A stretch of 64,000 bases of DNA from Perkinsus olseni (lineage: Eukaryota; Perkinsozoa; Perkinsida; Perkinsidae). The stretch spans positions 62,001 through 126,000 of the forward strand of contig JABANP010000006.1 of the NCBI GenBank assembly GCA_013115135.1, written 5' to 3'. The notes under the pieces were generated by a model. The model saw nothing but the letters and a program-made list of their open reading frames with translations, was not told the origin of the DNA and did not search any database. Numbering within the stretch: the stretch's first letter is position 1; each line of letters opens with the position of its first letter. Below are positions 1,141 through 46,442 of this stretch, piece after piece. The position numbers were made by a program, and so were the translations under genes.

Positions 1141-1162
1141 CACCGCCAGGCGGTGACCGCCT
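1141..1162. repeat. Double-centre palindrome module
   Basis: Two overlapping odd palindromes: arms CACCGCC/GGCGGTG around A1148, and arms AGGCGGT/ACCGCCT around G1155. The mirror centres are 7 bp apart. Confidence 0.85.
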
Positions 1163-1408
1163 CCTTGCTGTAAATCACACTATGGTTATCAAAGCCTGTG
1201 ATATCTCTAACTTGGGTGTTGTAACTATATAGTGACCAGGTCAAGGGCCTGCGCACAGGCGCATCATTTTCTTCTTGTCATGTTCTTCAGTGGCACATAA
1301 CCAGTTAGGTAGTCCGTATTCATTCAAATGCAGTGGACAATTCTGTACCTCTCCGTCGTGCGTGCTATCACATAGTCAGCTCAGCTTGACTCTGTTGTGG
1401 CCAGCCAC

Positions 1409-1431
1409 GTGCCCAGTGGGCACTGCCCACT
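1409..1431. repeat. Double-centre palindrome module
   Basis: Arms GTGCCCA/TGGGCAC around G1416 overlap arms AGTGGGCA/TGCCCACT around C1423. The centres are 7 bp apart. Confidence 0.85.
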
Positions 1432-1920
1432 ACGATCGCCAGTCTATACTGTACTGTTTGCTCAACCGAGGAAGCGTTCTCGCGTTACAAACGCGACTGA
1501 CCTAACAGTCGCGAAGCAAGGGCTATATGGATGGTGGATAGTGTGGCTAGAGCTTTCGATTATCGAAAACCGATAGGTTGGTGTCTCTTCGTTGAGGTAA
1601 GCCGCGAAGGACCGGGGCCCGGTCACCGGGCCCACGAGTGAGGCGCGTTCCGCGGCATCGGAACAAGCCTAGGGCGGGCAGCGTGATGAAGCCGTGCGCA
1701 CGCTCCCGACGAAAACACGACAATAATAAAGGGAGCCGATACTGAATTACTGTTGTGAACAAAACTGTCACCATCAGCCCAGAGACGCGATGGCTTCCGC
1801 CACGACAACGTCTTCAGCGATCCAGTATGAAGTATCGCCCCAGGTTGCCCCCACGGCACGGGGACGCACCTGACTGGAAGGTCGGTAGTAGAGGCCGATG
1901 TCCTCGGGGACAATGCTGTA

Positions 1921-1969
1921 GCGTCGGCCCGACGCCGTCGGGGCCATTCTGATTCAGAATTTCTGAATC
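1921..1969. repeat. Two adjacent double-centre palindrome modules
   Basis: Module one (1921-1942) has centres at 1928 and 1935 with 7-bp arms (GCGTCGG/CCGACGC, then CCCGACG/CGTCGGG). Module two (1946-1969) has centres at 1953 and 1960 with arms of 7 and 9 bp (ATTCTGA/TCAGAAT, then GATTCAGAA/TTCTGAATC). Both modules have 7-bp centre spacing although their sequences are unrelated. Confidence 0.85.
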
Positions 1970-2524
1970 GACCCAATATGAGAGACTCTCTGGAGTTGAC
2001 TCGACGCTTGGAGCTGGCACGGAACGGTTGACATTGAGCCCGCTTGAACTTGACGTGTTAGTGCATTCGCTAAGACCTGATAGCCTCCTTCTAAGGCAGG
2101 CGGGCAACATGTCCCCACGGGGACACGTGGCGTGACTCCACTGTGTGGACAGATATACTCGAAGTCGTGATCACGTCGTCGGTTGATACTATAGGTAGTC
2201 GATGGTGACAACTCTGGCAGCACAATCGCAGAGGCAGATACAGATATAAGAAAATACTTGGGCTGCGGCCGACAAGGCTGACAGGAGTGCCATCAATAAT
2301 CCTCAGAAGACTCTGAATGTAACCGATCCCGTGACGCATATGCTACACTAGACTTTGGCGCCAGCTAGACACTGTCTACTTCGCACATGCAAGGCAGCAC
2401 AGCCAACAACTAAAGGTAGTTGATATCGCCCGAACGGGATCGATTTACACACATCAAAATAGCGAACAATCGATCGCAGCTAACAGACTGACCAACAGGG
2501 GCCAAGCAGATCATCCTACCACAA

Positions 2525-2558
2525 CTGGTGTCACCAGGTGACAGTGTCACCGTGACAC
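2525..2558. repeat. Chain of four overlapping odd palindromes
   Basis: Mirror centres lie at 2531, 2536, 2544 and 2551 with arms of 6, 7, 7 and 7 bp, so the same sequence folds back on itself repeatedly. Examples are TGTCACC/GGTGACA and GTGTCAC/GTGACAC. Confidence 0.8.
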
Positions 2559-2692
2559 CACGCCCATTATAGGCGATCTCTTGCTAGCCAGGAAAAATTC
2601 AAGCCACGAACCTGGTTCGTGGTTCGTCAAACCAACGAGATTTTCGTTCGTATTGGTGTGCCGATCTCATTATCGCGCTCAGCTTTACGAAC

Positions 2693-2962
2693 ATGAAGTT
2701 CCCCTTCGTTGCGTCGATCTTGCTCATAGTCTCTGCCGCCATTGTCATTGAGAACGATGAATCCGCCGCGTCCAACGCAGGAAGCAGTTCAACGCCCACA
2801 TTGCGCAGGAATGTCGTGAGGAATGACTTCGAGTCCAGTTCTGACTCCGCCGTCAGTGTTGAAGTTCATGGTGGCGGTCACACAAGCGGCGGTGGCGGCG
2901 GTGGCGGCGGTGGCGGCTTCGACGATGACGACGGCGGCGGTGGTGGCGGTGGCGGCTTTTGA
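2693..2962 (+). CDS. Glycine-rich small secreted protein
   Basis: Predicted protein of 89 residues from the ATG at 2693. Residues 1-20 form a hydrophobic leader (MKFPFVASILLIVSAAIVIE), followed by NDESA as in the gene at 728. The DNA just before both ATGs is also similar (cgctcagctt). The mature part diverges completely: a Ser-rich linker, then two poly-Gly runs separated by FDDDD, encoded by a GGTGGC-type repeat. The leader and the block after it are therefore shared while the tail has been replaced, possibly through expansion of the Gly repeat. The function is unknown. The repeat tract may vary in length between strains. Confidence 0.6.
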   Translation: MKFPFVASILLIVSAAIVIENDESAASNAGSSSTPTLRRNVVRNDFESSSDSAVSVEVHGGGHTSGGGGGGGGGGFDDDDGGGGGGGGF

Positions 2963-3725
2963 AAGAAGACCGACGGAGGGCACACCGTGTACCGAACACG
3001 TGCCGGTGCTGTGATGACTCCTGATGACTGTGATGATGACACCGCCCCCATTGCATTTCTCAGAAATGATTTCTGTAATCGTTGCGGTTCGCCACTCCAT
3101 ATGGTCTACCGCCTCATCGTGGCGTGGGAGTGATACTCATTCGGAGTATGCGCAGCTAGACCGACTATACCGAACTCGACGATCACCCAAAGGGTGGTGA
3201 CTGAGTGGCGGTAAAAATTCCCTCCCCCCCCCTTTGATCAATCTATACCCCCTTCTCGTCTCTACGCTGTCGATTCGCCACCACGATTACCACCAAGGCT
3301 GTGGTACTGCCCGAGTTGTGCATTGGCTACATTGGTGCTCGACGATATTGCCTGATACCTATAGTCGATTATACTGTACTTGCGGATTAGTCGCTGTATT
3401 CCATCGTTACCCTCGCCACTGTTTCCTTTGTTTTAGCGTTTCGACCATGTTTCACCGTGTGTATTGCATAATTTTGGGGTTGAGGGATGATGCTGCCACA
3501 GGTTATTGCCTCTGAAGCTCAGAGTCTGAGTGCACTGGTCGTAGTATGGCCGATAGTATCGCAGCGATACGCCACTAGGCGTGTAATGTCCCAATGGACC
3601 GCTCTATCGCTCTCTACTCTGCCACTCTAGATCTATCCTATCTGAGATCTTGCGGTAGGTTGTGCGGTTGTCTCTCTTAGAGAGTCCCTCGCCTAGAACC
3701 ACTCATAACTGGGTGAGTGGCAACT
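2963..3725. other. Spacer with palindromes, no gene seen
   Basis: It holds a double-centre module at 3054-3075 (centres 3061 and 3068, arms CATTTCT/AGAAATG and CAGAAAT/ATTTCTG) and an odd palindrome at 3556-3570 (GTATCGC, A, GCGATAC). A C-run lies near 3225. The open frame at 3234-3515 is rich in stop-free pyrimidine codons and has no supporting motif. Confidence 0.55.
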
Positions 3726-4066
3726 GGTACAGTGACAACCGGCACAGCCTCGGATTCGTACAGGCTTTATTTGGTACGTCAGACGTACTACGTCTTTCAT
3801 TCGTACAGGAGTATCTCGTACAGTTTCAAGCCGCACAGTGATAAGTCATACAGTGACAGTCCGTACAGTTTCCAGGCTGGAAATTCCAGCGATACAGTTT
3901 CGTTCAGTACAGTATCCACAGATACAGTGAGTGCTGGATACTGTACGACGTGTCACTGTCGGTGAGTCACTGACAGTGACACGTCGTACAGTATCCAGCC
4001 GTACACCGACCATTCGTACAGTATCCAGCGGTACAAGCTTTATTCATACAGTGTTATTCGGTACAG
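3726..4066. repeat. Array of GTACAG-like hexamers
   Basis: About fifteen copies of GTACAG, ATACAG or CACAG, usually followed by T or TTT, lie mostly on the same strand at loose spacings. Clear copies include those near 3727, 3768, 3803, 3817, 3848, 3862, 3907, 3921, 3985, 4016 and 4061. Between them are the double-centre modules 3774-3795 and 3869-3890 and the long palindrome 3933-3999. The spacing is irregular and there are no conserved direct repeats with unique spacers, so this is not a CRISPR array. Confidence 0.7.
3933..3999. repeat. 67-base near-perfect palindrome
   Basis: The arms 3933-3960 and 3972-3999 are perfectly complementary over 28 bp. The central 11 bases continue the symmetry (GTGA, G3966, TCAC) with one mismatched pair, 3961/3971. 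The whole is thus a 33-bp arm pair around a single central base. A second centre at 3973 (GTCACTG, A, CAGTGAC) lies 7 bp from the main one, the same geometry as the small modules. Confidence 0.9.
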
Positions 4067-5116
4067 CTGCCTCCTTACGCAGATCGCGGCAAATTTGTGC
4101 AGGAGTCATTTCGATAGCTATAACTCCTTGAGGGAGATTAGAACCTGTGCCATATACGTGGCATTCCGCCGTCTCAACCAACCCGCCTGAAAAGCCATTC
4201 CCAATCCCGGAGGCAAAAGGTTTCAGTGCGCCCGAGTACAAATTGATGCCCGGGGATACCTCCAGCTCGTGACATCTATCGATAGAGAAGGGCTCACACA
4301 GTGAGTTCGCTCCCTTCACTGGCGACAATGATGCTGTTGACAGTACCACTCGCCACTACGCCAAGAGTGGAGTCAACTCTTTCGGAGAGGGAAGGATGCA
4401 TACTGTTGGCCTTGTTATTGTTTTGATACCCTCTGCGTGATGTGGCGATCTCGACTCGGTCAGGGTGCTCCGATTAACCTCGTGACTCGCGGAGAAATTA
4501 CGTAGCTCATTATTATGAGCTTATCTGCGGTAGTGGAGTGAGTTCCGACCATTGCCCTTTCAGGACGACCTTCAGGCGCCGAAGATTGAGCTGCGGTACT
4601 CAGTAATCCGTCATGAGCGGCTCCTATCGAGCTGCGGTAACTTATCTTCTCTGTACTGTACGCGATTGCTGATGAATGAAGTAATGCATCGACGTTAATG
4701 CGGTATATTCAACAGACGGGCATGAACGGTCGAGGTAGATTTCATGCCACGCGTGACAGGTCAATTCGTCTGCAGCATCAACAGCCGAGCCACTACGTGT
4801 AGCCGTTCCCACCACATTCGTCAATAACATTCGGCAGCGAGGCCATGCCTCGGCTGAACACCCCCGCGCTAGGAACCGCTGATTATTTGTGTATGCCAGG
4901 CTGCCTGATCCAGGCATAGCACACCCGAGCGACACCACTCAGTCTAAGCGTCGCTCTTCGCGGTGCACGAGAAGTGTTAACCTCTGGTTTCGATGTCGTT
5001 ATGCCCAGCGTTGCATCCTGTGCAGTGAGACTCTCACTGTGAGAGCTTGCTCCGATGCATCGTAATACTTCACCGATCGATAGATGAATCATCATCTTAG
5101 ATGATGGTGAAGGCAA
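4044..5116 (-). CDS. Possible multi-exon gene, unrecognised
   Basis: Two minus-strand blocks read like protein. One lies at about 4642-4938 and is Cys-rich (GCSAEAW, RCRMLL, ELTCHAWHEIYLDRSC). The other lies at about 4044-4349 (EPFSIDRCHELEVSPG, ECHVYGTGSNLPQG). The DNA between them has stops in all frames and would have to be intronic. I see no start codon with a leader and no known domain. Odd palindromes at 5023-5045 and 5090-5106 lie at the proposed 5' end, which argues that this end is spacer. It may be a decayed gene. Confidence 0.3.
5023..5045. repeat. Double-centre palindrome module
   Basis: Arms CAGTGAGA/TCTCACTG around C5031 overlap arms CTCTCAC/GTGAGAG around T5038. The centres are 7 bp apart. 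Another odd palindrome with 8-bp arms (CATCATCT/AGATGATG) follows at 5090-5106. Confidence 0.85.
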
Positions 5117-5256
5117 CCGGAGTCACTATTAACGCCAAGCCTAATCGGTCAAAGTCCTTGGAAGAACGCACCCGCTAGGTCTGTAACGACCTCACATGAA
5201 GACAGAAATGAACGAAAGAGCTCGGAGCGGAATGCTTTAATGGTGCCGGGGGAACA

Positions 5257-7580
5257 TCACGAGCTCAAAATTTTTGGTCCGTAGGTGAACTTCAAGTCCC
5301 CACGGACACTCTCCGGATCATTCTTGAATCTGAGACTGTCGAAATGCCTAAGGATAAGGGCTACAATAATTGTAGCTTCGATAATAGCCATCTTCTGGCC
5401 CGGGCATTGCCGAGGGCCTCCGCCGAATGCAAGATGCTGGCGAGCGCGACTTCGGTCTACCGCGGAGCCACCATGATGCAGCCAACGCTCCGGTCTGACA
5501 AATGGTTACATAATGTAACTTACATTTGGTTAAGACAGAGGACGAACGAAGTGGATGGGGATCCGGTTGTGTACTCGAAAGTTGTTCCGCCTTGCGACTC
5601 CTCAACCATCGCTTTGCGTAAGAGCGTGGCAACCGAAGTTCCCGAAGGTATCGTCTTCCCGTTCAGAGAGGTGTCGGTGATGCATTCGTGAAAAAGGATC
5701 ACAGCCGGGGGTTGCAGCTAACAGAACCACCATGCCCTCTCAAGCTGGGTCGGGCAGTCCGACTCGGACTGAAAGCTTACTCTCAGCGCCTCAAGTACAC
5801 AGCACTCAACGAGCGGCAGCTCATCAACATTCTTCATCGTTTCTGGGTCGCGACCGAGCGCATCCACCTCGGCCCTTGCCTTGGCTTGAATACAGGTGTT
5901 GAGACAGAGATAGTAGAGGCACCAAGCGACAGCCATAGCCGAGGTGTCGCTGCCAGCGATGAAGAACCTGCAACAAACTGTTACACCGGGGGGAGTGATG
6001 ACCACTGTAATCTCCGATTATTGGAGATCACTCAGTGATCTCCGAATAATAAACTTGGCAACCTAGCACACGTGAGCATCACATGACAGTTACGTAATGA
6101 TGTTGCCCCGCAAGTCTTCTCGGTCAAGATGTAATAGTTTATCTAACAGGTCCGGGCGTGTAGCCTGTACTCTGGCTTGCCGTTCTGCCTTCCTTCTGCT
6201 GGCGATCTCATCACAAAGCTCATTGAGCCGCTTAACTCCCAGATGTAGCTGAAATAAAAAGCATAGCATTACGGAGCCATCACCAAGCCGACACCTTCTT
6301 AATCAAGGGGTTAAGATTCCATGGAAATCTATCACGAGTCATCCAGGGGAAGTTACTCAACATAAAAGCATGACCCGACCCAACCATTATATCCTTTAAG
6401 GCTCGCTGGACCTCTCGAGAGTTGTGACCCAGAGCAATGCCTGAAATTATCGCATGAACGTGCTCGTTGATCTAGTGGCTATGGCGGTCGAAACACTATT
6501 TCACGACCTGTACATAGGGCCCCTATGATAGGGTTCGTTGAGTAAGGTATTCTGCCGGACTCATTTCGGAAGCTCTTTGAGCACACGCAGTGGACCACTG
6601 CGACCACTGCCAGTGGTCGGAAGCACTACAAATCGTGCGGAACGTCGTTGACAGAAGGGACTAACTCGTGAACTGCCCCGTTACCACCAGGGTTCAAAAA
6701 ATTGTAGTCGTTTCCGAAAGATGTAACGCACAAGATATCGAGGGTGCAAAGCGGGATCCACTCAGTGGGAGACCAAACGATGCGCCCGTCTTGTGAGAGG
6801 GAGTTCAGTTGCCGAACCTAATTACAAAATCATCAAGGAGCAACAGTACAGGAAGCGTACCAGCTTTTTCGCGACTCTTGCGATGTCAGGTACCATGGCA
6901 GCGGAGTTCACGTCGTTAAAAGCCGGGGCGCCCAATCGCCTATTGCGTTTCCACTTTTCACCTTCGGTAGTGAACATGCCGGAAAAGGGCAGGACGTTAA
7001 TTTTATTGAAACGTCTTATGTAGGTGTTTGGACGCTCCGTGAGCACTTGTCTGATCAACTCGGGGTCGGAAACAACTATCACCTCTTTGGTGGTGATTCT
7101 GAAGAGCCAATACTTTCACAGCTCAACGGGAGCGGCCAGCACAGAGGACGGCATTGCTCAACCCTCGGAGTAATGATGTCCAAGTGAAAAATGAAAGAAC
7201 CGAGTTCCGCTGGGCGCCTTACTTGATGCAGTAAACACCACCGTAAGTATCAGCGAACATCTCTAAAGCGCGATGAAAACGTTCTCGTGATCTTGAAAAG
7301 AGGCCCAAGGGGAGGAACTGAAATGTGTCGATGCCAGGAATATGGTCAACGCGGGAGAAGCTCTAGACAATCCCCTATACTATAACTCTTATTCCAAGCT
7401 CACCCGATTTGGCCCGCCGAAGCGGGCGTGGAGGTCAACCTTGGGGCGTTTCCTCAACTTGATAGTCCCCAGGGTGAGTACTAAGGCTAAGCCCGTCGCC
7501 AAAATCAGCGTTCTGCGAGACTGGATGAACCACCGGAACTTGCCAATGAGCTCTTGGACAGAACTCGGCAGATAGGTCAT
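5257..7580 (-). CDS. Cytochrome P450 monooxygenase
   Basis: Haem-thiolate monooxygenase, probably anchored in the endoplasmic reticulum by an N-terminal hydrophobic helix (LILATGLALVLTLGTI, residues about 25-40; start ATG at 7580). In order I see a region around IVVSDPELIRQVLTERP, the helix C motif EGEKWKRNRR, the oxygen-binding I-helix FFIAGSDT near 5960, the K-helix EALR near 5770, PERW near 5490 and the haem-ligand motif FGGGPRQCPG near 5410. Helix L is MAIIEATIIVALIL and the stop is TGA at 5259-5257. Several GT-AG introns split the gene. One of about 71 bases directly follows EALR, and a candidate of only 29 bases precedes PERW. Odd palindromes lie in these introns. The substrate cannot be told from sequence. 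The frame between exons two and three is not fully resolved. All catalytic motifs are present. Confidence 0.85.
5505..5526. repeat. Double-centre palindrome module at a P450 intron
   Basis: Arms GTTACAT/ATGTAAC around A5512 overlap arms AATGTAA/TTACATT around C5519. The first palindrome lies inside the candidate 29-base P450 intron (5523 to 5495 on the minus strand), and the second spans its donor site. Confidence 0.8.
6010..6050. repeat. Long odd palindrome in a P450 intron
   Basis: Arms GGAGATCACT/AGTGATCTCC pair around C6033 (6023-6043). ATTATT and AATAAT extend the stem with one bulged base. A third copy of the arm start (ATCTCC) at 6010-6015 can pair with the same left arm. Confidence 0.85.
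6586..6619. repeat. Overlapping odd palindromes
   Basis: Arms CGCAGTGG/CCACTGCG around A6594 overlap arms CGACCACTG/CAGTGGTCG around C6610. Nearby, 6513-6533 has centres at 6520 and 6527, with 7-bp arms CATAGGG/CCCTATG and a 6-bp second pair. Confidence 0.8.
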
Positions 7581-7604
7581 TAATATTGACTCGCTACTAG
7601 CGAG

Positions 7605-8716
7605 AATGGAATGGTTTATCCTGCATGGTTTACCCTCCCTAAGCTTCAGGGGTCTTTGTCCGCCCGGGATACGCTGCCATGGTCACCAGCTCGTACGGAA
7701 AGTTGTCTACCAACACTGAAATGAAACGGGTTCCTAAGCAGTGCTCAGTAAGCACAGTCATATCCAGCTGCGTTGAACTCTATGATAGATACTGCGCGCG
7801 AGTCCGGGAGCGGGCACCTCGCTGACTCAGCAATCAGTGCTCAACTGCTATTGAGCTCGCGTCATTGACGAAGTTATCGCTGCGTTAACTCACAGTAGCA
7901 ACGCATAGAAGGGTATGAGTACGTCACCGAACTATCGAGCAGTGCTGGCCGCAAGATCAAAGTTCACGCACGCGCCTCAGCCATCCAAACTCGCGATAGC
8001 CCCCGAATGCCGCTTGAGCCCATCGCTCTTGTCTGGCTTGTCTCAGACAAGTTGTCTGTCCCACTCCACTTTGATTTTCAACCTCGCAGGAGGATCCTTA
8101 TTCCGCTAAGCAGCTTATGAAGCACTACTATTCAACACTCGACTTGTGTGGCGCAGCAAACATATTCCAATAGCCAAGACCCACCCTGGAAATCTCATAC
8201 GACGCGAGAAACTGAGGACACCCACAGGATAGAATCCAGAGTTCACCCCACTTGATACTATGCGGAGGTTGAACAAGTCGCTAAGTACCGCGCATTTACT
8301 CGCCCCGGACAGACTACTTTGACCCGTTGCAATCGATCAATCAAAGATTTACTGGTCGCGCGGCGCAACGCACTGGTTATGTGACGCCGTTTTGTTCGCT
8401 TGCGTGCGCCATACTGATCGATTCCCACTTCTTTTTGTGAGTGTGCTTGACTGAGCGTTGGTGACTGAGGAACATCTTTTTCATTTTAAGATGAATTAGC
8501 TTATCCTTCTTCATACATGTCTGATCGATCACTAGGTCCAAACGCGTGGTTACAGGTTATCGCGTTCCTAGGAGCGCTCTCGGGAGCGTGCTCTCAGGTA
8601 CCGGCCGTGGGCGGCGACAGTGCTACGACAAGGCCCGACCAACACCTATTACTGTAAAGGGATAGCGCGGTTTTCAGCAATTCGATACTGCGAAAAGTTC
8701 TGCGTATTCGTGGTCT
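7605..8716. other. Spacer upstream of the P450 gene
   Basis: An odd palindrome (7590-7604, CTCGCTA, C, TAGCGAG) sits about ten bases upstream of the P450 ATG. A double-centre module lies at 8037-8058 (centres 8044 and 8051; arms CTTGTCT/AGACAAG and CAGACAA/TTGTCTG). A plus-strand ATG at 8518 opens a short hydrophobic peptide (WLQVIAFLGALSGACS) that could be a leader exon, but I cannot connect it to anything. Confidence 0.5.
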
Positions 8717-8929
8717 CTATGGATCGCAGCTTTCTCCCCGAGACGCCGGTTCCTTCGGAGTCTTTCTAGGCGGATCGGAGGCGGTCATTGGGATAAGACA
8801 TACAACAGGGGCAGTCTGATGCTGAGAGCTGAAATATCCACCGTAGGAGGTAGTAGAAGTTTCAGATGCTCCTGCGGGCGGATATGAGACTTGCTGGTCG
8901 CGTGGAATTACTGTGTGGACCTGCGCCAT
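8717..8929 (-). CDS. Possible small Ser/Thr/Tyr/Pro-rich protein or first exon
   Basis: A 70-codon frame starts MAQVHTVIPRDQQVSYPP and is rich in S, T, Y, Q and P. It reads like a disordered N-terminus and lies divergent to the plus-strand coiled-coil gene. No domain is visible. It may be a first exon whose continuation I cannot find. Confidence 0.3.
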   Translation of the reverse strand: MAQVHTVIPRDQQVSYPPAGASETSTTSYGGYFSSQHQTAPVVCLIPMTASDPPRKTPKEPASRGESCDP

Positions 8930-9329
8930 CGATGGTCTGAAGCGGATCGTTAGATTCTCAAGAAGTGAGCAGCATTCATTCTGGGCAATCGAGGCTGACT
9001 ACGGTTGGAGATAGGCTAGTGGATAGTAAGTGCAAATGTGGTGCAAAGGAGCAGTTAATACTATGCAAGGTGAGACTGGGAAGGTCGATTGTTCTGCATT
9101 TCCGACCAGTCGTCGCTAGTCCCGCCTCGAACGCCTCGTCGGTGACGACAGGAAGAGGAGGCGGTGCGCCGTCAACAGGGGCAAGCTGGCTGCAGCGGGG
9201 TGGGTCGAGCTATCTGTCATTGAAGGAGTCGCATAACACAGTACAGAATAGTGATCGGTCTTGATGAGTAATTGGTGGCTCTTCAAAGTTGCGGAGGGTC
9301 AAACGCCGTGAACCCATGTTTTCTTAAGT

Positions 9330-13752: not shown

Positions 13753-13776
13753 CAAGAGCGGCTCTTGAAGAGCCGC
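13753..13776. repeat. Double-centre palindrome module
   Basis: Arms CAAGAGC/GCTCTTG around G13760 overlap arms GCGGCTCTT/AAGAGCCGC around G13767. The centres are 7 bp apart, as in the 1-8 kb cluster. Confidence 0.85.
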
Positions 13777-17110: not shown

Positions 17111-19297
17111 ATGTCGCGATCATCGCTGTCAGCCCGGTTGGAGGACATCTTGCGAGAAAGTGAAAGCGCGGTTGCATTGCTAGATCGTCTTGTGCAAACT
17201 GGGAACTCTAAGATGAGCTCAGGCACGGGTTATTCGGGCGGCGCAAGTGTCATGGTTCTGTTTTAGAGTATCGCGCGAGACCGGACCCTTGGAACGGAAG
17301 AGACTGAGGTGACTTAGCTGGGAATGTTCCGATCCATAAAGATACGTATCAGTCATCCATGCCGGAGCAGAGCTGCCGCAGAGAGATGGAGGAAGCGGCA
17401 TGTGATATACGTATACTCACGAGGAGCCTCAACGCGTTAGCTGGAAGTAGGAACGGGCTTATCGCATGGGGCAGTGGCACCAGCGGCTCAGTTCGATGCT
17501 CGTCCTGGCAAGAAGATACGTCTCTCACGGCAGCGGTGGATGGCTTGGAGAAGGCAGTCATGACCTTGACTGTGCAGAAGAGAGGAGGAAACCGGGGTGA
17601 GGCTTCGAGGTCAGAAGGCACCGTACGTGAGTCTTTCGAATAATGTCAAGATAAGAATGTCTCTTGTCTCTATCGGCGAATCATGCGACGACCCCCGGAT
17701 GCTAGGTTTACTGAAGTCTCTCATGCGTTATTCGTTATTTGTTTTCGGCTTTCTGCGGAGTTGCTATGAACGAATAGGTTCAAGTTTGATCGGCATTGGC
17801 CGGGAGTGTTCTGAGCGATTCGGGCGAGGTCGCCCTGGCCGCTGCTATGTCAGGCGGTGGCGTGTCGCGTAGCGTCGGTGGCGCTCCTAGCCGCAGTAGA
17901 GAGCGCGTTCCAAGCTATATGGATCAAATGAGGGCATCGCTCCGTCGGTTGAAGACCGAAAACCAACATCTCAAACTGGAGGTTCATCGACTAACCCCGA
18001 AAGCCGCAGCTAAATTCAGGTAGAAAGTGTTTTCTCATTTCATCATGAGCTTTATGATAGGCCTCTTAGCCGAGGGCGACCGTTCCCCGGCACTAGCAGA
18101 GAGCAGTCCTGTGGTCCGGTGAGAGCGTCGGCTTCTGCGACTGGCAAGGAGAAGCGGCGCCTGGAGAAGTACGAGCAGCTACTAGACGATCTGCAAGACG
18201 AGCTTCGAGACCTCATGAAAAGCCGGAGTGGGCGGAATCGGGAGGGCAGCGCATGAATTGCCGGGGGCGTACGATGCGGGTCTCGCCGCTGCTGCCTACC
18301 CGGTCCTGGTAGAAGCATGGGTGAGAGAGCTACAGCATTGATGTGTCATAGTGCAATGGTTGAGTTATTAACAGTGTTGGTACTACGACTGCACATGGGT
18401 CGGGATGGGAAGACCGGCCGCACGGCTCTCTCAGGATGGGATAACGGGATGAGGTTTTGCCGTTGGCTAGTTGCGTCCGATATAGCTTGCGAATTCAAAT
18501 GCCCTCTCGTAGTACTAGTCGCCACCAAGGTGAAGATTCGCATTTGATCACTGAGATATCGGAGCTCCGGCGAGAGTTGGTGAGTAGACAGGCATTCGGT
18601 GATGGTAGCGTGAGAAGGGGTGGAGACTTCGAGGAAATAAATGACTCTTCACAGAGAGGTTTCGGAGAAATTGTAGGCTACAATTTGTAGGCATAGGAAC
18701 AAAGTTATAGGGCTGTGCCGAGAATTGAACTCGGGACCTCTCGCACCCTAAGCGAGAATCATACCACTAGACCACACAGCCAGTTAGTTGCTAGTAGTTT
18801 CTCGTCATGTACTACCCTTCAGAGTCGCTGAATCAGCATAGACCGGTCGGCTTCTGCACAGGTCGTGACGCAGGAGCAGTTGGCAGAGCTGCGCTCTCGC
18901 AATGCCGCACTCGAGAAAGAACTTCGACTGGCTCATCATCAATTGCGAAAAGAAGGAAGACAAGAGAGCTATGCCCGCGCAGCTACGGTAGTCTTGCTCT
19001 TGTTGACGTCTACATATGCGCCGGAGCCGTGCGTCCGAGCGACAGGAGACTGTTCTGACTTGATTCTAGCGGGCCAAAGATGTTGCATTAAACATCCCGT
19101 TGCGTTAGGCGAATTCCCTATCTCCGGCCAAGCCTTCCGCCTCTCGCCGAAGTTGCCCCGGAGGCTCATTGGCTTTGGCAGTGCGGGAACGAGAAGGGAG
19201 AATCAGGGCGGGCGCTGCTGATAAGATCGTGTGGAAGCGGGTAGACGGGCGGATGGTTCCTGTCTTGAAGGACGAGGGCTTGGAGCCGGTACAGTGA
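17111..19297 (+). CDS. Multi-exon coiled-coil protein hosting a tRNA gene
   Basis: The ATG at 17111 gives MSRSSLSARLEDILRESES. Later exons continue coiled coil: EEAACDIRILTRSLNALAG (about 17385), SYMDQMRASLRRLKTENQH (about 17915-18020, ending at a GTAGAA donor), EKRRLEKYEQLLDDLQDELR (about 18150-18250), ITEISELRREL (about 18545) and EQLAELRSRNAALEKELRLA (about 18870-18960). The last stretch reads KIVWKRVDGRMVPVLKDEG and ends with TGA at 19295-19297. The intron between about 18582 and 18860 contains a tRNA-Pro gene on the opposite strand and an odd palindrome at 18668-18686. I do not recognise the family. The final exon may instead join the next gene, as the 19300-19420 region also reads as coiled coil. 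Confidence 0.55.
18668..18690. repeat. Double-centre palindrome sharing its core with 10222-10236
   Basis: Arms AAATTGTAG/CTACAATTT around G18677, then arms CTACAA/TTGTAG around T18684, with centres 7 bp apart. The core ATTGTAGGCTACAATTT is identical to the copy near 10222. Confidence 0.85.
18711..18781 (-). tRNA. tRNA-Pro(AGG): tRNA-Pro (anticodon AGG)
   Basis: Read on the minus strand, the acceptor arm GGCTGTG pairs with CACAGCC. The anticodon stem CTCGC/GCGAG encloses the loop TTAGGGT (anticodon AGG), and the T arm is CCGAG TTCAATT CTCGG. A-box (TGGTCTAGTGGTA) and B-box (GAGTTCAATTC) promoter elements are present and no intron is visible. It lies antisense inside an intron of the 17111-19297 gene. 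Confidence 0.93.
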
Positions 19298-37241: not shown

Positions 37242-37920
37242 AACAAACTCTCGTCACCCTGGAAGAGAGCCTAACTTACTCTAGCGGAAGCTGCAAAACA
37301 CTCCTGAGATATAAGCGGCGCAATGAGGAGCAGACGGATGGTCGGCTGGGATGGAAATGAGATGAAATCGAATATCCGCATCTGACGAGGAGGCAGATCG
37401 TACAGACGTTAGCGTATTGCTATGACGTTCTCGCGAATCTTAATTTCTCGGTCAACCTAACCGAAACTGTGCATCAAACGAGCGAGCTATTCAGACTCTG
37501 TTTTTGATGTGCATAAATACATTCCGAAATCCATACTGCGAGAGTCAACCAGTCGTCTAGTGGAAGATTGGCGCAAAATATGTAGATCCGTCCCCCATCC
37601 GCACTACATCTCCTGCGTCAGCGTGAATTGCATGCATTTGCCTCGAAAAGGTACAAGTAAGCTGCTCAAGTGCCGAGGACGTGAAGGCATTTGAGCCAAT
37701 AGCTGAGCACCTGATAGGAAACAGAGTCATGTGCGCTTAGCTCACATCTTGCGCCGAAAAGTCGGGAAGTCTCCCAACGCCTACTGCCTCAACTGCTCAG
37801 ATTACGCATGCATCAATTGCAGGGAGAAATTCAAGTGCCAAACAAGGACCAGTCGGTAGCCGGTACGCGATGACGGATGTCGGCACCGACAGCTACCCTA
37901 TAAGTAGCCTGTAAATGCAC

Positions 37921-37951
37921 CTAGTACTAGTTGATTTCTAGTACTAGAAAT
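37921..37951. repeat. Even 18-bp palindrome next to a copy of its core
   Basis: ATTTCTAGTACTAGAAAT (37934-37951) is perfectly self-complementary. Its core CTAGTACTAG is repeated just upstream at 37921-37930. Confidence 0.85.
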
Positions 37952-38187
37952 TCTGCCCTTTCCAGTGCTACTTTTGATCGGCTCGTCTGCAAGCTAATAA
38001 CATATCCATCTGGCTAACGGTACAAAAGCTCTGAGGGAACAGTCGCTGCAGAAGGGCCGCCATGGCCACCTCCAGAGCCGCAGAGCTGTTCATCGACTGA
38101 TTTGGAGGTATAGTACCTGGGCACGGAGCGGATGGATCACTATTAGACAACGAGTAACGCGCCGCACTAGAATGAACAAGCCAGTAG

Positions 38188-38206
38188 GAATTCTACTGTA
38201 GAATTC
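38188..38206. repeat. Odd palindrome with 9-bp arms
   Basis: GAATTCTAC/GTAGAATTC around T38197. It overlaps a CAGTAG/CTACTG pair centred at 38190, so again the centre spacing is 7 bp. Confidence 0.85.
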
Positions 38207-39374: not shown

Positions 39375-39689
39375 GAGTGTACTGATCGGAAAAGGCCGAA
39401 GCATTTATCTCGACCCACCAGGGATGAGCCAGCACTGTGATCTGTGTCGTGAGCCGGCTCGTGATTCCCGAATCGTGTGGACACCGCTTTGGAGTGTCTC
39501 ACCAGAGCCAGGAGAGCGATCGGTCAATCACAATGCATGGCTCCGTGCGAGACCGAGTAGTATGTGTCAAGAACTGGAACACAACAGCACCTTAAAGCCA
39601 TACTGCACTAGGAAGCTACAGAGAGCATGGTGTTAGCAGGAAAGTTTGAATCCGCTGATTCCCATCATCGAACCCTTTCTCGCTTGCAT

Positions 39690-40188
39690 CAAAGGCTGCA
39701 CCGAAGCTGAGCGAAACGGTTGCTGCTGTTAGTCGAAGCGGGAAATATTCGTATCCCGAATGACAGAGTTTGAAATTGCGTTCTTTTGACAAGCTTCATC
39801 GATTGCATGTCTTCCTTGTAGGTGGATCGAGCGAATCCCCATTTACCGTTCACGATTTCAGTTTCAGCGACGCTGTGGTACCTGGAGTGAGCGTAGTGGA
39901 CGACGTACATTGACAGAATGCAGCACCGTGACCCCTGAATACGGAGAGCAACCCCGAAGAAGGCGAAGTTCGCCCAATCTCTCCCTGAAGGCACTTTCCG
40001 ACAGGGTCACTGAGCAATCGGCCACTATTTCGAGTGCCCGCCAGCAGAAGGCGGCATTCAACTGAGCATTTTCTATACGGCATAGATCTCAACAAGTGCT
40101 GCGGCTGTATACCTATATGACGTGGAGGAAAAGCAAGATCGATAAGATTTTCAAGTCGAACAAGTTGAGCGTACGTACGTCGTGCCAT
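39690..40188 (-). CDS. Unrecognised gene divergent from NOP4/RBM28
   Basis: The ATG at 40188 gives MARRTYAQLVRLENLIDLAF. After an intron, LNAAFCWRALEIVADCSVTL and AFRERLGELRLLRG follow (about 40065-39955), then VAETEIVNGKWGFARSTYKE with MQSMKLVKRTQFQTLSFGI (about 39880-39760). The 3' end is uncertain. About 150 bp separates its ATG from that of the plus-strand gene, so the two may share a bidirectional promoter. Confidence 0.4.
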
Positions 40189-40335
40189 ACCACTCCTTCG
40201 GGAAATCACGGGGCCAGCCGGCGCGTCGCTCTCGCTTTCCGGGAATTCCCGTGAAGTGACGAACCATATTCCAGTAGTCAACGTCGCATTAGTCTAAGCG
40301 TTCTCCCGTTGACCAGCTAGGCTTTTCTAATAGCG

Positions 40336-43300
40336 ATGGCCGAGGGATCAGCTGCTTCAGCAATGCAGCACACTAAGGAGGGCCGCGTTATCGTCCGGAA
40401 CCTCTCCTACAGGGCAATGAAGCCTGACCTGCAAAAGTAACAGAGAGTCTTGTTCCCGTGAGAAAACCCATGTTCGAGCTTCAGGGCCATGGCGCGGTTC
40501 GGCAAGATCGAAGAAGTGGTCCTCGGTGAGAAGCCACACAACAAACCGAACTGGCCTTTCCCACACGGGTATTAGAGGGCATCAGCGTCAGATGGCAGTA
40601 TATAGAATGCCACAGGGCCTTCTCCCAGTGAAATGATTGTTCGAAAGCTCGTGAATCCTCACGGAGGAGGCCTCTTCGTCCCGAGGGTTCGATAAATTGT
40701 TTTTTCAGTGGATTCGCCTTCGTTCAATACTCGACGCGAAAAGATGCAGACAAGGCTGTTGCTGCCAGTGGCTCTACACAGGGTCTGAAGGTTAGGGGAA
40801 GACAGGTAGTAGACTCGGCGGCTAGAGAATGGATGAATGTAAGGGTTATGCAGCAGAGGGCAAGAAATCATAGACTGGGGAGCCGATTATAGCAACTGTC
40901 ATATTGCTGCCTAGCTTGCGATGCGCAGCAGATTGACTTTCGGTGAAAGCATATCTTCTCAGGTGGCTGTGGACCTCAGTGTAGACACTCGAACGTATGC
41001 TAAGAAGAAACGCGAAAGACGACAAAAGGAGGTAGAGGAAGCGAAGAAGGAAGAGAAGAATGAAAAGGAGGACGAAGAAGAGATAAAGGAGGAGCCACAG
41101 GAGGTAATAATTTTCGGCCGGATGAACGGATGATGATCGTTGGCTGTCTGCAGCATGACGATGATGATAATGACGACGATGAAGACTCCGAACAGTCTGA
41201 AGGCGAGGAGGACGAAGAAGAGTCGCCGAAGTCCAGGCCGAAGCGGAAGTGCGGTTTTGATTTGGACGAAGGCCGGACATTATTCGTAATACAGATAGGG
41301 ACGCTTCGCAAGCACCCTAGTAGCTGGCGCAAATTCACTGAAGGAGAGGGTTGCCATGGCTGATGTCCCGAAAATGGGCCAGTGCGCCATGAGTATCTTA
41401 GCGCGCCATGATCAATATCATAAAATCAGCAATTCTATGACACTGGGCCTGCTCGATGGCTCGAGCGCGTATTTAGCCTGCCTGAATAGCTTTGTCCGAC
41501 CTTGCCGACCCCCAATGGTGAGCAGGTCTTCAGCCTCGATTGTTCAGATCCGCAACCTTCCTTTCACGTGTACAATACCCGATGTCGTCACAGCGCTAAC
41601 GGAACAGCTGAATGCGGAGGGTGATACAGTCAAAGACCCTGTCGCTTTCGTCAAGTTTGTTGGCGGCGGTGAGCATCCCTCGAGCGGCAAGGCATTCGTT
41701 AAAATGCGTAACAGCTCTGAACTCAACCCGAATTTCTGAAAGGTTTCTGCTCAGGCTCCAGCGAGGTCGCCGACAGACTGTTGGACATCGAGGAGCAAGC
41801 AAATAGGGTAGTGATGAACGGGAACGTGGGAAGGGTCATTGGCACGATTAGCCGTCGCGACCACAGTCTTCCTCGTGATTCATTTTGAGATCATTCTAAT
41901 CGCGCGAGACTTTCTCCCGATAAAACATGTATCTTTATGATGTGAATGCATAAACCGGAGTCTATAGTCCGTAGATGTATTTCCAATCTGGTCCGTGGTC
42001 GCGCTAGCACGTGCCGTCTCCTGCCATGACTATGTAACTTGCCACCGAGCGACGCAAAAGGCAGTCCTTATCGTCTTAGAATGGCCAGGTGTTGACTGTG
42101 GCTCTCCACCGGCAAATGCATGCGCATGCTTCATGTTTGCGTACGGCGTGATCATAGACCGACTAGTGGCTACGGAGCGCAGGAGACCAAAACTGATCCA
42201 GGTTCTTGGTCTGGCCGCGAAGGAGGCGAAATCCATGAGCAGTGCCGCAGCAACCGCCAATCTAGAGGGTATCGGTATACACGTTGGAGGAAGGAGAGTA
42301 GTGGTCAACAGGGCTATCAAACCTGATGAGGTGATGGGGGAATCTTTGGTTGGACATGGCTTGATACATCGGTTTGGGGTTGAAACGAAGTCTTAGGGCG
42401 TCTCGCTGTTCGACTGCGAGAGATAGCATATTTTTTCTCGAGGTCGCCGCTGCTGCTGAGAAGAAATCGCAGGCGGACAGTAAGAAGAACTTGCATTTAC
42501 TCAAGGAGGGATATATAGACCCTGGTATGCTCTTTCGGGTACACCAAGGAGTTCTCCGCTTCATTCTCGTGCGATTCATTCAGAATCCCAAGAGTTCTTG
42601 CAGCTGAGTGCTTCTGAAAAGCGACTTCGAGAGGCTTCTTGGAAGGAGCGAAAGTGAGCGAAGCCCGCCCGCAAGTCCGTCCGCAAGTCCGTCCGAGATG
42701 GTTTAACTCAGATATAAGATGTACAATAATACCAACTTCATCATCAACCCCTTGCGGCTGTCTATTCGTAACCTGGCCGTTCACACGACCAAACAGTCAC
42801 TCAAACACGCCATTGACGAGGCCCTCAAGGAGGCTAATGTCAAGGCGAGTACTAGGCATTCCGTGAAGGTAGTGAACGGCGGGCGATGAACTCCACCCAT
42901 GCTCTGTTGGGCTTCTCATGCGGAGAACTATTGCCTGGGTGTTGCTGATGCATCCATGGTGTCGTCCTACGGGGCGATTGAAATAATCCTGCGCCACGTT
43001 CGAAGTGCAAACTGGCGCGCTCTTGATGATGGATTTTATCAGGTGACTGTGTTGGTCGATGAAGAGAGGCGAGTGCCGATACCTGGTGGCGAGGAGGGAG
43101 CTACCACCAAGCGATGCAAAGGATTCGCCTTCGCAGACTTTAGGAACAACCAGGTTGCTTTGAAGTGCCTAAGAATGATGAATAACAACAACAAGTAGTA
43201 CTCGAGGTGGCTGCCGGCGAGTTGCGGTCAATGCTGGATCTGGCGTGATCTCACAGTCGCACGCCCGGACTGAAAATCAGAGTGCATTGAGATTGAAGGC

Positions 43301-44478
43301 AATTGAAGAGCCCTGGATAGCTTACACTGGCATAAGCCTCGGTTCTCAACCCTGGAGTTATAGCTGGGTTCTTGCCGTCCACCGGATTCTTTATACGGTC
43401 GTAGAATTGGTGGAAATCAGCCGTCGAGCAATTTCCCATCTTCTGAGCTGGAAGGGCATTGAGCCGCAGGTACTTGGACTCGGACCGTCGTGCTATTGTG
43501 GAGTTCGCCATCGAGGACAAGCGGGCCTTGAAACAACTGGAGCATTCCAAGAAGAAGCAGATTGAGAAGAAAAAGGAAATGGTCAGGCGGGTGTGCCAGA
43601 TGACCTCCATCGCGACGCTAGTGCAACTGCTCGAAACTCTGAATCGGGATCGTGTGTATTGATTCAGGAGGTCCAGAAAGATATCGAGAAGTCTCACAAG
43701 GGAGGGAGAGGTGCGCGGCAACGAGCCGCTAGGCGCAAGAGGGCTGAGGAAATGGTAGCAGCCGATGAGGGCAGTGACGCAGCTGCTGATAAGGTCATAG
43801 GGGTGTTACCTGCCGCGAACTTGCGCGAAATCTCAGCTTCTATCAAAGTGGGCGAAGTGGGTCTTGAAGGGTTTTGCGACTCGAGAGGCTCAACGTCCTT
43901 CCGACGCAGTTTGTTCAGGCTGAGGCTCCCAAGGTCGCCACTGAGGCCAACGAGGCCGCGACGGGTAGCGGATCACCTCGCAAGAAGTTGGGCCCTGCCG
44001 CTAGACGCCGAGCTCGTCGTAAGGAGCAAAAGGAAGAGAAGAGGAAGGCGAAGGTGAGGGGTCGGGTGGGACGGGTCGGGTGACGCTTGATGCCAAAGCT
44101 GCGCCAGGCTGACTCTTTTTCCGAGCAATGTTATTGTAATCGGCCAAGAACGGAATTCTCGCTTTGGCACATTAGAAGTGTCAACATCGATTTCTAACCT
44201 TTTTCGGTGGATTTAAGTGACTTTGTGCTCAGGCCCCCTCTTCCGACCTGGCCGACGATCGGCATGAGCTAGAGAGGCTCGCTCAAGCAGTGGCTAAGTC
44301 CCGGCAGGAGAAGCCCGATGGTAACATAATTCCAATGCTGCTTTCTAGACTACCAGGTTTTCCAGATACTGAATTTCCGTCGAGAGTTCGTCGACGCTCC
44401 GGCAAGAAGCGAGAGGCCGATAAGCTGTTGGAGACTGAGGAACGGTATCTCTCGAAGGTCCGTCGGATGCAAGAGTAA
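40336..44478 (+). CDS. NOP4: NOP4/RBM28-like multi-RRM ribosome biogenesis factor
   Basis: Nucleolar protein with several RNA-recognition motifs, needed for 60S subunit assembly in yeast (Nop4) and animals (RBM28). The ATG at 40336 is followed by RRM1 (RVIVRNLSYR, FGKIEEVVL, FVQYSTRKDADKAVAA). Next come a Lys/Glu-rich linker (KKKRERRQKEVEEAKKEE) and an Asp/Glu tract near 41160-41220, then a motif GRTLF near 41275. An RRM (VQIRNLPFTCTIPDVV) spans 41545-41735. The family signature KKNLHLLKEGYIDPG lies near 42485. The last RRM has RLSIRNLAVHTTKQ near 42760 and CKGFAFADFRNN near 43118, followed by AIVEFAIEDKRALKQLE (43490). The tail is strongly basic (ARRRARRKEQKEEKRKAK), ending VRRMQE with TAA at 44476-44478. 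More than ten introns are present. Some RRM edges and frames are uncertain. Confidence 0.82.
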
Positions 44479-46442
44479 TAGCAACCCTACCAACGTCATT
44501 GTTCACTAACGTTTCTCCAGTCGTGTGGGCGTTGTCTTGTGATAAAAACTCAATTCAGCCGCGTACGTAGAACATCAGGGTTTAGTGCATGTATCATAGT
44601 TAACCCAAGGAAGCTTGAGTGTATTATGAGCTCGGACAGCATGACAGCCATTCCCATATTCAGTATTAGAAGTGATCCAACGGTCGAGGTATCTGAAACG
44701 GAGGTTTACTCAATTCTCACTCAAACGGGAAATCTAGTTTTAGTGACAACACACGAAAGCGAGGAAGTGTGACATATCGTTGAGAAAACTCTACTGGACG
44801 CCAAGGGAACTGACCCAGGTATGGTCTCCATTTGATCCTTCCAACGATGCTCCGTAGTACGCTGATACGAGTTGGATCGGCGAAAGTGACGGGCCAGTTG
44901 TGTGGTAGCCTGAGTGACTTGTAGTGCGAACTAGCGACGACAGGATCCACGGACCCTCGGCGTCCTCTTCCTCCCACGGCGTGCGTCCTCACTAACATGT
45001 AATGATCTATCTTCCATCCGCTCGCCACGGCGCACCCTGCGACCCTCGGCGACTGATCCAACGAGAGTCGACTGGTGCTGATGCGGCCGCAAGGAGGCCA
45101 ATACCTGAACAGAGTGCTCTTCACAGCGGGATGCCTGAGCAGTCCATACTGGCAACTTTCGGCAGATCAATGCGGAAGCTCCTAGTAGATGTTCACTATA
45201 CGTATTCAGTCATAGAACGGGGAGTGGATTCCGGGGTACACAAGGGTCGGAAATCGTGGTTGCAAGATGCATAATGAAACTGTGCGTGTCACGATGATGC
45301 CATCATTACGGTATCACGATGAGTAAGGTGGCATCAGCTGCTCGAGCAGCGCTGCTAGAGAAAAACTGGCAGCACGCCAAAAACTACACGTCCATTGCTC
45401 GAAAATGTGACGGTCGTGACGGTCGTACATCCTTTCCGAAGCACGGCTCCGTCAGACCTGGAGTATGGTCAGATTCTCGTTCGAACCTGAGACCACTGAT
45501 GCAACCTCAACGACAGCCCACGGAGTCCTATCTATCGATACTCATACTCGAAGACGAGCAGCGTGCGAGAGAGACGCTAAGTTCTGGCAGAGGCACCAGG
45601 GCCGCAGCAACTGACCTGAGAGCCTCCACAGGGTTAAATCGTCTTCTGCCTCCGCGCCCTCCCAGAACGCCTCCGACGAGCTGAGGACAACTCCGGTAGT
45701 GCATGCGGGAGCAATAAGGCTCGATATTTGGATTGGACGTTTGGTATCTGTGACTTGGCGAGTGAGCTATGTTGCGATAGTAGCGTAACCCACCCTCTCT
45801 CACAACCGACTGTCCTGTATACAGCAGTTGTTGTCGGGATACTGTAGCAGTTCATTGGAGTTTGACAAAGCTGACATAATCGGTCCCGCTACAAAACATC
45901 AGCGCAGTGTATCGGAGGAGGCGTGCTAAGCAGAGTGAGCCCATCCCTCATCAACGTGCATCATAAATTATAGTCGCCCCATACTATTAGCGGCCAAACT
46001 GTTATGGGGCCGGAAAGTCGTCCATCTCATACCTTCTCGATGAAACTGGAGAGGCGATTCGCAACGGCGTTAGGAAAACTCAGTTCCAAGAACTAGACAA
46101 GTGAAATGATGAGCTACTGGACTAGACCGACCAACTCTCCGAGTCCATCCCATACATAGCCTTGATGACGAAGTACTTCCGGCTACACCAGTGAAAACTA
46201 GCCACCGGGAGATCGAGATCGCGTCGAGGCGATCTCTAGCTCACCTGCCGTCTGAGACGGCCCGTCTCCCACCAGAGATTGCTCAGCACGTTCGGACTGA
46301 CCGAGTCACGCGCGCTCAGGTTCAGCAAGGCCAAGATAACCGCAAAATTAATAACGCCAGCATATCGAGAGGGTATCAAGAAAAAGGTAGTCCGCATATG
46401 GATGCTTTAGTTATAGGTGAATTCAACGTATACATCATCTCC
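44479..46442. other. Mostly unresolved 2-kb stretch
   Basis: Long open frames exist on both strands (for example minus 45124-44717 and plus 45319-45684) but none shows a domain or clear splice pattern. The minus frame WPVTFADPTRISVLRSIVGR is the most protein-like. A double-centre palindrome module lies at 46247-46268 (centres 46254 and 46261; arms GCCGTCT/AGACGGC and GAGACGG/CCGTCTC), and an 8-bp-arm hairpin at 46215-46236. Confidence 0.4.

What the first reader, a model, noticed from the sequence alone, without database searches (positions are those of the whole stretch)
1141..46268. Double-centre modules: two mirror centres exactly 7 bp apart, about 22 bp in total
At least sixteen of the palindromes are overlapping pairs with centres 7 bp apart: 1148/1155, 1416/1423, 1928/1935, 1953/1960, 2544/2551, 3061/3068, 3781/3788, 3876/3883, 3966/3973, 5031/5038, 5512/5519, 6520/6527, 8044/8051, 13760/13767, 18677/18684 and 46254/46261. 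Two more have a short loop in one partner (25557/25564, 38190/38197). Each is an arm, its inverted copy, then the arm again, with a 14-bp translational repeat. Nine are exactly 22 bp with 7-bp arms throughout. Such fixed geometry with free sequence points to a dedicated mechanism or to a protein that measures 7-bp steps.
Basis: seen in the sequence. Interest (0 to 1): 0.92.

Follow-up and report, generated by a model that had tools for sequence, protein, structure and literature searches.

The report
Stereotyped hAT transposon excision scars
The small double palindromes scattered through this shellfish-parasite genome look like scars left when hAT jumping genes cut themselves out, and they stand out because the scar takes one and the same form, an exact 14-base insertion, which may reveal an unusually deterministic repair route.

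Summary
All 18 listed modules are in the window at 13 or 14 of 14 pairings; 7 more were missed. In 264 kb of the genome, odd inverted repeats peak sharply at 7-bp arms and centre pairs at distance 7 (53 pairs; 0-3 at other distances to 40). The exact rule is V[1-7]+RC(V)+V[2-8], V being an arbitrary 8-mer. Paralogous empty sites carry V once: 35 of 35 cleanly flanked fourteen-base indels in the paralogs held are modules, and an outgroup polarises 4 of 5 recent ones as insertions. The organism is very probably Perkinsus olseni.

Best explanation: footprints of hAT transposon excision. V is the 8-bp target-site duplication; hairpins on both flanks, opened, give palindromes centred on the complement of the base next to the element. 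V shows the hAT target preference (nTnnnnAn, first base rarely T). hAT elements with long open transposase frames and 8-bp duplications reside in the genome. New is the all-or-none form: 53 complete footprints against 6 sites with any partial form of 3-7 P nucleotides. I infer that the two opened hairpin tails anneal through the duplicated V. No site with the element in one copy and the module in another was found.

The parts
1141..1162 (.). module 14/14, V=CACCGCCT
   Evidence: empty site with V in paralog L033
1409..1430 (.). module 14/14, V=GTGCCCAC
   Evidence: empty (V with changes) in L032 and L033
   Evidence: empty with exact V in L032; L033 ambiguous
1921..1942 (.). module 14/14, V=GCGTCGGG
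   Evidence: shared by L032, empty in L033
1946..1967 (.). module 14/14, V=ATTCTGAA
   Evidence: empty with exact V in L032 and L033
2537..2558 (.). module 14/14 inside a triple-centre cluster (2536/2544/2551)
   Evidence: shared by L032 and L033
3054..3075 (.). module 14/14
3774..3795 (.). module 14/14, V=GTACGTCT, inside a multicopy repeat
   Evidence: empty with exact V in L047
3869..3890 (.). module 14/14, V=TTTCCAGC
   Evidence: empty (V with changes) in L044-L047
3959..3980 (.). module 13/14, inside a longer inverted repeat
5024..5045 (.). module 14/14
5505..5526 (.). module 14/14
   Evidence: present in L034, empty in L035
6513..6534 (.). module 13/14
   Evidence: absent in L034-L036
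8037..8058 (.). module 14/14
13753..13774 (.). module 14/14
18670..18691 (.). module 13/14
46247..46268 (.). module 14/14

Best explanation
Each module is the scar of a hAT DNA transposon that inserted at an 8-bp target V (making V-element-V) and later excised. The transposase nicks each flank 1 nt outside the element (recalled for Hermes) and seals it into a hairpin, so each flank strand reads V[1-7] then RC(V), pivoting on one base, the complement of the base next to the element. When both hairpins are opened far enough, their single-stranded tails (RC(V) on one side, V on the other) are complementary because V was duplicated; they anneal, and filling and ligation give exactly V[1-7]+RC(V)+V[2-8], a net +14 bp over the empty site. 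Shown: the geometry, the single-V empty site, insertion polarity in a few cases, target preference, resident hAT elements with 8-bp duplications. Inferred: that an element sat at each site, and the tail-annealing step that makes the scar all-or-none.
For: Paralogs: 35 of 35 fourteen-base indels with clean flanks are modules at 11/14 or better (lengths 12 and 13: 0; 15: 1); they collapse to 29 distinct modules, of which 15 have an empty paralog with V exactly, 10 differ from V by 1-2 bases and 4 by 3-4. With L033 as outgroup, 4 of 5 window/L032 differences are insertions, 1 ambiguous. V in 76 modules at >=13/14 has T at position 2 or A at 7 in 63 of 152 positions (p=2.6e-6) and T at 1 or A at 8 in only 11 of 152 (p=7e-8); I picked these positions after seeing the table, but they survive correction for all position-base pairs. 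This is the hAT preference nTnnnnAn; of the 16 Hermes targets in Table 8 of PMC2803484 none begins with T, and of the 15 with a readable last base none ends with A (passage). [quoted passage not shown] hAT dimerisation domains at 21 places; one element, in C941 and C816, with different 8-bp duplications (TAGGGCTT; CCTGATTC), terminal 100 bp 99-100% alike; another in C268 (GCGGTCGG) whose paralog C288 has the site once. The C941 transposase has DUF4371 and the hAT domain; D190, D251, C282/H285 and W347 are invariant and E611 nearly so in 13 aligned proteins. All-or-none: 53 complete sites against 4, 1, 0, 0 and 1 sites with 3, 4, 5, 6 and 7 P nucleotides.
Against: No locus was found with the element in one copy and the module in another: the paralogous sites compared for four element copies (C268, C941, C684, C204) were plain empty sites. 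hAT scars studied elsewhere are heterogeneous (PMC5873905 passages: 28 kinds in 128 clones, longest P insertion 3 nt in C. albicans; arms up to 20 nt in yeast), whereas here one complete form dominates, which needs the added annealing step. My search for partial forms asked for perfect V on both sides, so scars with deletions would be missed, and forms with 0-2 P nucleotides cannot be told from chance hexamer repeats. Three resident duplications (GCGGTCGG, TAGGGCTT, CCTGATTC) do not fit nTnnnnAn, so the family that wrote most modules is not identified. The density is high for few resident copies: 5 modules against 32 to 41 substitutions in 2.7 kb for the closest pair.
Confidence: 0.8

Rival explanations
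1. A hAT-type nuclease, perhaps domesticated (Kat1-like), cuts V directly on the two sister chromatids without any transposon, hairpins the ends, and the hairpin tails are joined; no insertion-excision cycle is needed.
For: Same chemistry and same V preference; many more modules (76 at >=13/14 in 264 kb) than hAT domain places (21 in the genome); no site with element and module found. Kat1 shows that a domesticated hAT transposase can make hairpin-capped breaks (PMC4763223 passages).
Against: Two copies of V are needed, which a target-site duplication supplies for free; Kat1 itself depends on terminal inverted repeats; hAT elements that look recently moved are resident.
Confidence: 0.1
2. Short replication template switch (copy forward, switch to the other strand for 8 nt, switch back), as in polymerase-theta or fork-switch mutation clusters.
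For: The product V[1-7]+RC(V)+V[2-8] is formally a four-point template switch (alignments; the comparison is mine); 6-bp repeats remain at the joints.
Against: Lengths would vary; here 14 bp is fixed (35 events; 0 at 12-13, 1 at 15) and V has a target consensus. No reason for an 8-nt unit.
Confidence: 0.06
3. Functional binding sites of a protein that reads two 15-bp odd palindromes 7 bp apart.
For: Fixed geometry.
Against: All 76 V sequences differ; modules are insertions that differ between paralogs and decay gradually (53, 23, 29, 52 at scores 14 to 11).
Confidence: 0.02
4. Assembly or read artefact (for example polymerase hairpin artefacts).
For: Raw reads were not available.
Against: Modules are shared, some with mutations, by separate paralogs 4-22% diverged, have a target consensus, and are missing from long open frames.
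Confidence: 0.02

Closest known systems
hAT (Ac/Ds, Hermes, TcBuster) excision footprints with P nucleotides
   Same: 8-bp duplication, hairpins on the flank, odd palindromes centred on the complement of the base next to the element, nTnnnnAn targets (passages)
   Different: Elsewhere the scars are varied and often short; here one complete two-sided form (+14 bp) dominates, at thousands of places by extrapolation
TSD-guided repair after mPing (PIF/Harbinger) excision
   Same: The duplicated target gives complementary ends that guide repair (PMC4561436 passages)
   Different: mPing has 3-bp staggered ends and mostly precise restoration; here hairpin tails would anneal and 14 bp are added
Kat1 of Kluyveromyces lactis (domesticated hAT transposase)
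   Same: hAT enzyme, hairpin-capped breaks, CxxH motif (PMC4763223 passages)
   Different: Kat1 acts in mating-type switching at inverted-repeat ends; here dispersed arbitrary targets
Double-hairpin elements and palindromic repeats of organelle genomes
   Same: Short double hairpins spread through a genome (search listing only; features recalled)
   Different: Those are repeats of one sequence family in organelle DNA (recalled); here every V differs and the contigs carry nuclear genes
Amoebophrya introner elements
   Same: A parasitic dinoflagellate, with palindromic motifs and direct repeats (PMC7789003 passages)
   Different: 8-20 nt inverted repeats at the two ends of an intron with 3-5 nt direct repeats; not a 22-bp unit

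Membership tests
hAT excision footprint | 8-bp target duplicated | tested here: met
   The 22-bp formula implies an 8-bp V; of 29 distinct modules the empty paralog carries V exactly in 15, with 1-2 changes in 10, 3-4 in 4; resident hATs have 8-bp duplications
hAT excision footprint | Inverted repeats centred on the complement of the base next to the element | tested here: met
   53 perfect modules with both centres in place, 0 in two Markov copies; rule from PMC5873905 (passages)
hAT excision footprint | nTnnnnAn target preference | tested here: met
   63 of 152, p=2.6e-6; first-base T or last-base A 11 of 152, p=7e-8; a tendency, not strict; not every hAT family has it (TcBuster nnnTAnnn)
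hAT excision footprint | hAT transposase present in the genome | tested here: met
   21 PF05699 places; D, D, E, CxxH and W positions conserved
hAT excision footprint | Element seen at the same site in a relative | tested here: inconclusive
   Four resident copies compared with paralogs: all plain empty sites, no module; no second strain available
hAT excision footprint | Heterogeneous scars, often with 0-3 P nucleotides | tested here: not met
   53 complete sites against 4, 1, 0, 0, 1 sites with 3 to 7 P nucleotides; 0-2 not distinguishable from chance. A minor variable class exists as isolated palindromes, 57 against 21 even controls. This is why I call it a variant
Double-hairpin elements | Shared sequence between copies (recalled) | tested here: not met
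   76 different V among 76 modules

The most novel reading that the evidence does not exclude
In this parasite hAT excision is resolved by a deterministic pathway: both flank hairpins are opened at or beyond the far border of the 8-bp duplication (by a host nuclease or by the transposase itself) and the tails pair over the duplicated target, so nearly every excision writes the same +14 bp palindromic word and makes hAT excision one of the main sources of insertions in gene-poor DNA.
Probability: 0.5. Interest if true: 0.8.

Novelty: new variant of a known kind. Interest (0 to 1): 0.72.

Why it matters
How hairpin-capped breaks are opened and joined matters for hAT transposition and for V(D)J recombination alike. 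A genome with, by extrapolation, thousands of scars of identical geometry records the outcome of that step at scale, and suggests that two opened hairpins can be joined through a duplicated target instead of by ragged end joining. It also gives a readable history of past transposon activity where no element remains, and shows a process that in one locus added 5 insertions for 32 to 41 substitutions.

Tried and rejected
A general palindrome excess: with arms of 7 or more only the odd spacers 1, 3 and 5 stand out. Rfam and tRNA searches of the window: only two tRNAs. Iterated snap-back synthesis: it predicts a ladder with a second step at 14, but distance 14 has 2 pairs against 53 at 7. Partial footprints: every combination of 0-8 P nucleotides on the two sides with perfect V; distinct sites are 55, 20, 4, 1, 0, 0, 1 and 53 for 1 to 8 nucleotides. 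The form with none has 306 against 80 in Markov copies, which I put down to tandem hexamers, and 0+2 has 12 against 3.7, so a small class of short scars is not excluded; scars with deletions were not sought. Paralog indels of 5-11, 15, 17, 26, 30, 35 and 42 bases were read in listing and show no hAT pattern that I could see, apart from the 15-base one, which is a module aligned differently. Slipped deletion of 14 bp between the two 6-bp repeats would also restore V, so polarity was checked with an outgroup, for ten modules of which five are informative for the closest pair. Which copy of the 6-mer carries the mismatch in decayed modules was counted (46 outer, 9 middle), but the score threshold biases it. 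The hAT target signature in the isolated palindromes is weak: second base T 21 of 57 (p=0.03), first base T 8 of 57 (p=0.09), seventh base A 13 of 57 (p=1). A search for an element-occupied site opposite a module failed. Large insertions (60-6000 bases) in held paralog pairs: only the C941 element. Papers: searches (15 papers; 1; 3; 6) listed none on Perkinsus whose title or abstract start describes this; one search likewise for genome-wide hAT footprints, where I saw 15 of 71 in the listing. Of the papers named in this report I read passages only, none whole.
Full report
Where the window comes from. The window is positions 62001-126000 of contig C556 of a 61.48 Mb, 968-contig genome. The Perkinsus/dinoflagellate spliced-leader exon (recalled) is found at 183 places with up to 2 mismatches, and at 0 for the pattern read backwards. 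A homolog search with a resident transposase returned a Perkinsus olseni protein (FOZ60_016047) on a contig of 15,660 bases, the length of contig C816 here. So the assembly is very probably P. olseni, a mollusc parasite and alveolate.

The observation. I scored every 22-mer for the 14 pairings that two odd centres 7 bp apart require. In 264 kb (the window, eight neighbouring 10-kb stretches of C556 and twelve 10-kb stretches of four other contigs, chosen by me among long contigs, not at random) there are 53 perfect and 23 at 13/14; two order-2 Markov copies have none. Odd-centre arms number 75 at length 6 but 135 at length 7, then 31 and 22, whereas even palindromes fall away (44, 14, 2, 5). 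So 7 is a built-in length. Centre pairs: 53 at distance 7, 2 at 14, at most 3 at any other distance up to 40.

The rule. Reading the unit as xU y U' x' U y' (U of 6 bases, primes for complements) shows that it equals V[1-7] + RC(V) + V[2-8] with V = xUy', an 8-mer. The rule predicts that the ancestor carried V once and that 14 bp were added.

Test on paralogs. A genome search with window 1-9000 found diverged copies of this region (40 of 207 candidates scored). Alignments to 16 fetched pieces and L017 show clean 14-bp gaps at many modules, with V in the gapped copy, for example CACCGCCT at 1141, GCGTCGGG at 1921 and ATTCTGAA at 1946; other modules were in no alignment or only in poor ones. In all pairwise alignments of the sequence held at that point (182 alignments; those under 150 columns or over 99.9% identical were dropped; gaps had to have 15 gap-free columns with at least 11 matches on each side) there are 189 insertion events. 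Lengths 12 and 13 do not occur, 15 occurs once, and 14 occurs 35 times; all 35 are modules at 11/14 or better. Other lengths of 5 or more occur up to 18 times (6 bases), several of them one site seen in many repeat copies. The 35 are 29 distinct modules: the empty copy has V exactly in 15, with one or two changes in 10 and three or four in 4. With the 85% copy L033 as outgroup, four of the five modules that differ between the window and its closest copy L032 are insertions in one of the two; the fifth is ambiguous. That pair differs by 5 modules and 32 mismatches in a BLAST alignment or 41 substitutions in 2,701 columns of a MAFFT alignment. The other five pairs that I counted have 6 modules per 297 mismatches, 5 per 273, 1 per 18, 1 per 104 and 0 per 80, so the rate is uneven.

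Why hAT. Three features of the module are those of hAT chemistry. First, hAT elements duplicate 8 bp (PMC4763223 passages). Second, hAT transposases cut the non-transferred strand first and make a hairpin on the flank (PMC6900584 passages); that the nick lies 1 nt outside the element is recalled. [quoted passage not shown] with V on both sides these are precisely the two centres y and x' of the module, 7 bp apart because 8 - 1 = 7. Third, V has T at position 2 or A at 7 in 63 of 152 positions (p = 2.6e-6) and avoids T at 1 and A at 8 (11 of 152, p = 7e-8). Hermes prefers nTnnnnAn (PMC10368747 passages). In Table 8 of PMC2803484 none of 16 recovered targets begins with T and none of the 15 with a readable last base ends with A (my reading of the table; the starting vector's own site, CAGCCTGA, is not a recovered target).

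Resident elements. The hAT dimerisation domain occurs at 21 places. The C941 element (2,675 bp, ends CAGTGGCGG.. and CAGGAGCGG..) has the duplication TAGGGCTT; a copy in C816 lies between copies of CCTGATTC, its terminal 100 bases 99 and 100% alike. Six copies of the C941 host sequence lack the element: C456 and C323 hold TAGGGCTT once, C737, C263, C161 and C88 hold it once with changes. The C268 element has GCGGTCGG, present once in paralog C288; the same stretch of C268 also carries two 14-bp modules that C288 lacks. A third family (C457, duplication GTCTGATG) has further partial copies. The C941 protein has DUF4371 and the hAT domain. In an alignment of 13 proteins (this one, the C268 frame, and 11 of the 103 hits, chosen by me) D190, D251, C282/H285 and W347 are invariant and E611 nearly so. 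That these are the DDE, CxxH and W residues discussed for Hermes and Kat1 is inferred; the stretch around E611 is the one that matches Hermes, weakly (E = 0.89).

How it most likely works. Shown: the geometry, single-V ancestors, insertion, target preference, resident elements. Inferred: insertion of an element at V, excision with a hairpin on each flank, opening of both hairpins, and joining. The joining step has to explain why scars are all-or-none. With perfect V on both sides, 53 sites have the complete 8 P nucleotides, while 3, 4, 5, 6 and 7 are found at 4, 1, 0, 0 and 1 sites; the one with 7 looks like a module that lost a base. Ac/Ds in C. albicans gave 28 forms in 128 clones, and yeast gave palindromes up to 20 nt. 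If both hairpins are opened so that together more than 8 nt of tail is exposed, the tails are complementary through the duplicated V, and annealing, trimming and filling give the complete module whatever the exact nick sites. This is analogous to the help that target duplications give to mPing repair (PMC4561436 passages). A minor class of isolated odd palindromes with variable arms (57 against 21 even palindromes of the same size; arms 7 to 18) may be one-sided openings joined another way; their target signature is weak.

Numbers. Outside C556 I examined 120 kb in twelve stretches on four contigs: 25 modules at >=13/14, 15 of them in one stretch and none in five. Extrapolated to 61.48 Mb this is about 12,800, or 5,600 without that stretch; both rest on a small, non-random sample. 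Modules avoid long open frames: 0 in 28.4 kb of frames of 250 aa or more, 11 in 41.2 kb of 150-250 aa, 16 in 81.3 kb of 100-150 aa, 49 in 113 kb without a frame of 100 aa. A handful of elements excising at ordinary hAT rates over the time of a few per cent divergence would suffice; this is an estimate with assumed rates and no call behind it.

Against the reading. No site was seen with an element in one copy and a module in the other; the four element sites compared all faced plain empty sites, and for two of them (C684, C204) only one end of the element was in hand. Short residence of elements would explain this, but it is the missing link. Three resident duplications (GCGGTCGG, TAGGGCTT, CCTGATTC) do not follow nTnnnnAn, so the family that wrote most modules is not identified; flanks of the C457 family (for example GTCTGATG, ATCACCGC, CTGTCCCC) have T second, but CATCGTTC and TCCCATTC do not fit, and for most of those copies the two ends of one element were not both in hand.

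Verdict. A real, strong and widespread feature, explained with good confidence as hAT excision scars; the chemistry is known, the uniform complete scar and its abundance are not something I found described in the listings of the searches made (the library lacks most subscription papers).

Noticed in passing
264-kb sample; e.g. window 251, 5368, L017:9708: Isolated odd palindromes without a partner, 57 against 21 even controls, arms 7 to 18 with no sharp peak; perhaps one-sided hairpin openings.
   Followed up: partly
L065:163-190 (C206): The left end of a C457-family hAT copy abuts GGGGACACTGTCCCC, itself two thirds of a module; an element may have inserted into an older scar.
   Followed up: partly
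window 3093-3592 and 3711-4299: Two multicopy repeat families of about 500-590 bp, listed copies 71-88% alike (capped list); the second is built of TACAG-type short motifs.
   Followed up: no
G000 C268:207896-235713, C41, C270: Tandem arrays of the spliced-leader exon; single copies also sit beside frames that look to me like retroelement integrase/pol (L008, L009, L011; not tested).
   Followed up: no
G000 C290:190504-196479: Alternating alpha- and beta-tubulin genes in a tandem cluster, with long antisense open frames.
   Followed up: no
window 57744-57891: Abutting 74-bp tandem duplication, 95% alike.
   Followed up: no
window 3933-3999: A long inverted repeat surrounds the 13/14 module at 3959, possibly a second-generation event.
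   Followed up: no
L028 (C268:20001-30000) and window 1-8058 with L017: Modules are strongly clustered (15 in L028, 10 in L017, 0 in 5 of 20 ten-kb stretches); a hAT element lies 6 kb from L028. Local hopping or relaxed selection could both explain it.
   Followed up: partly
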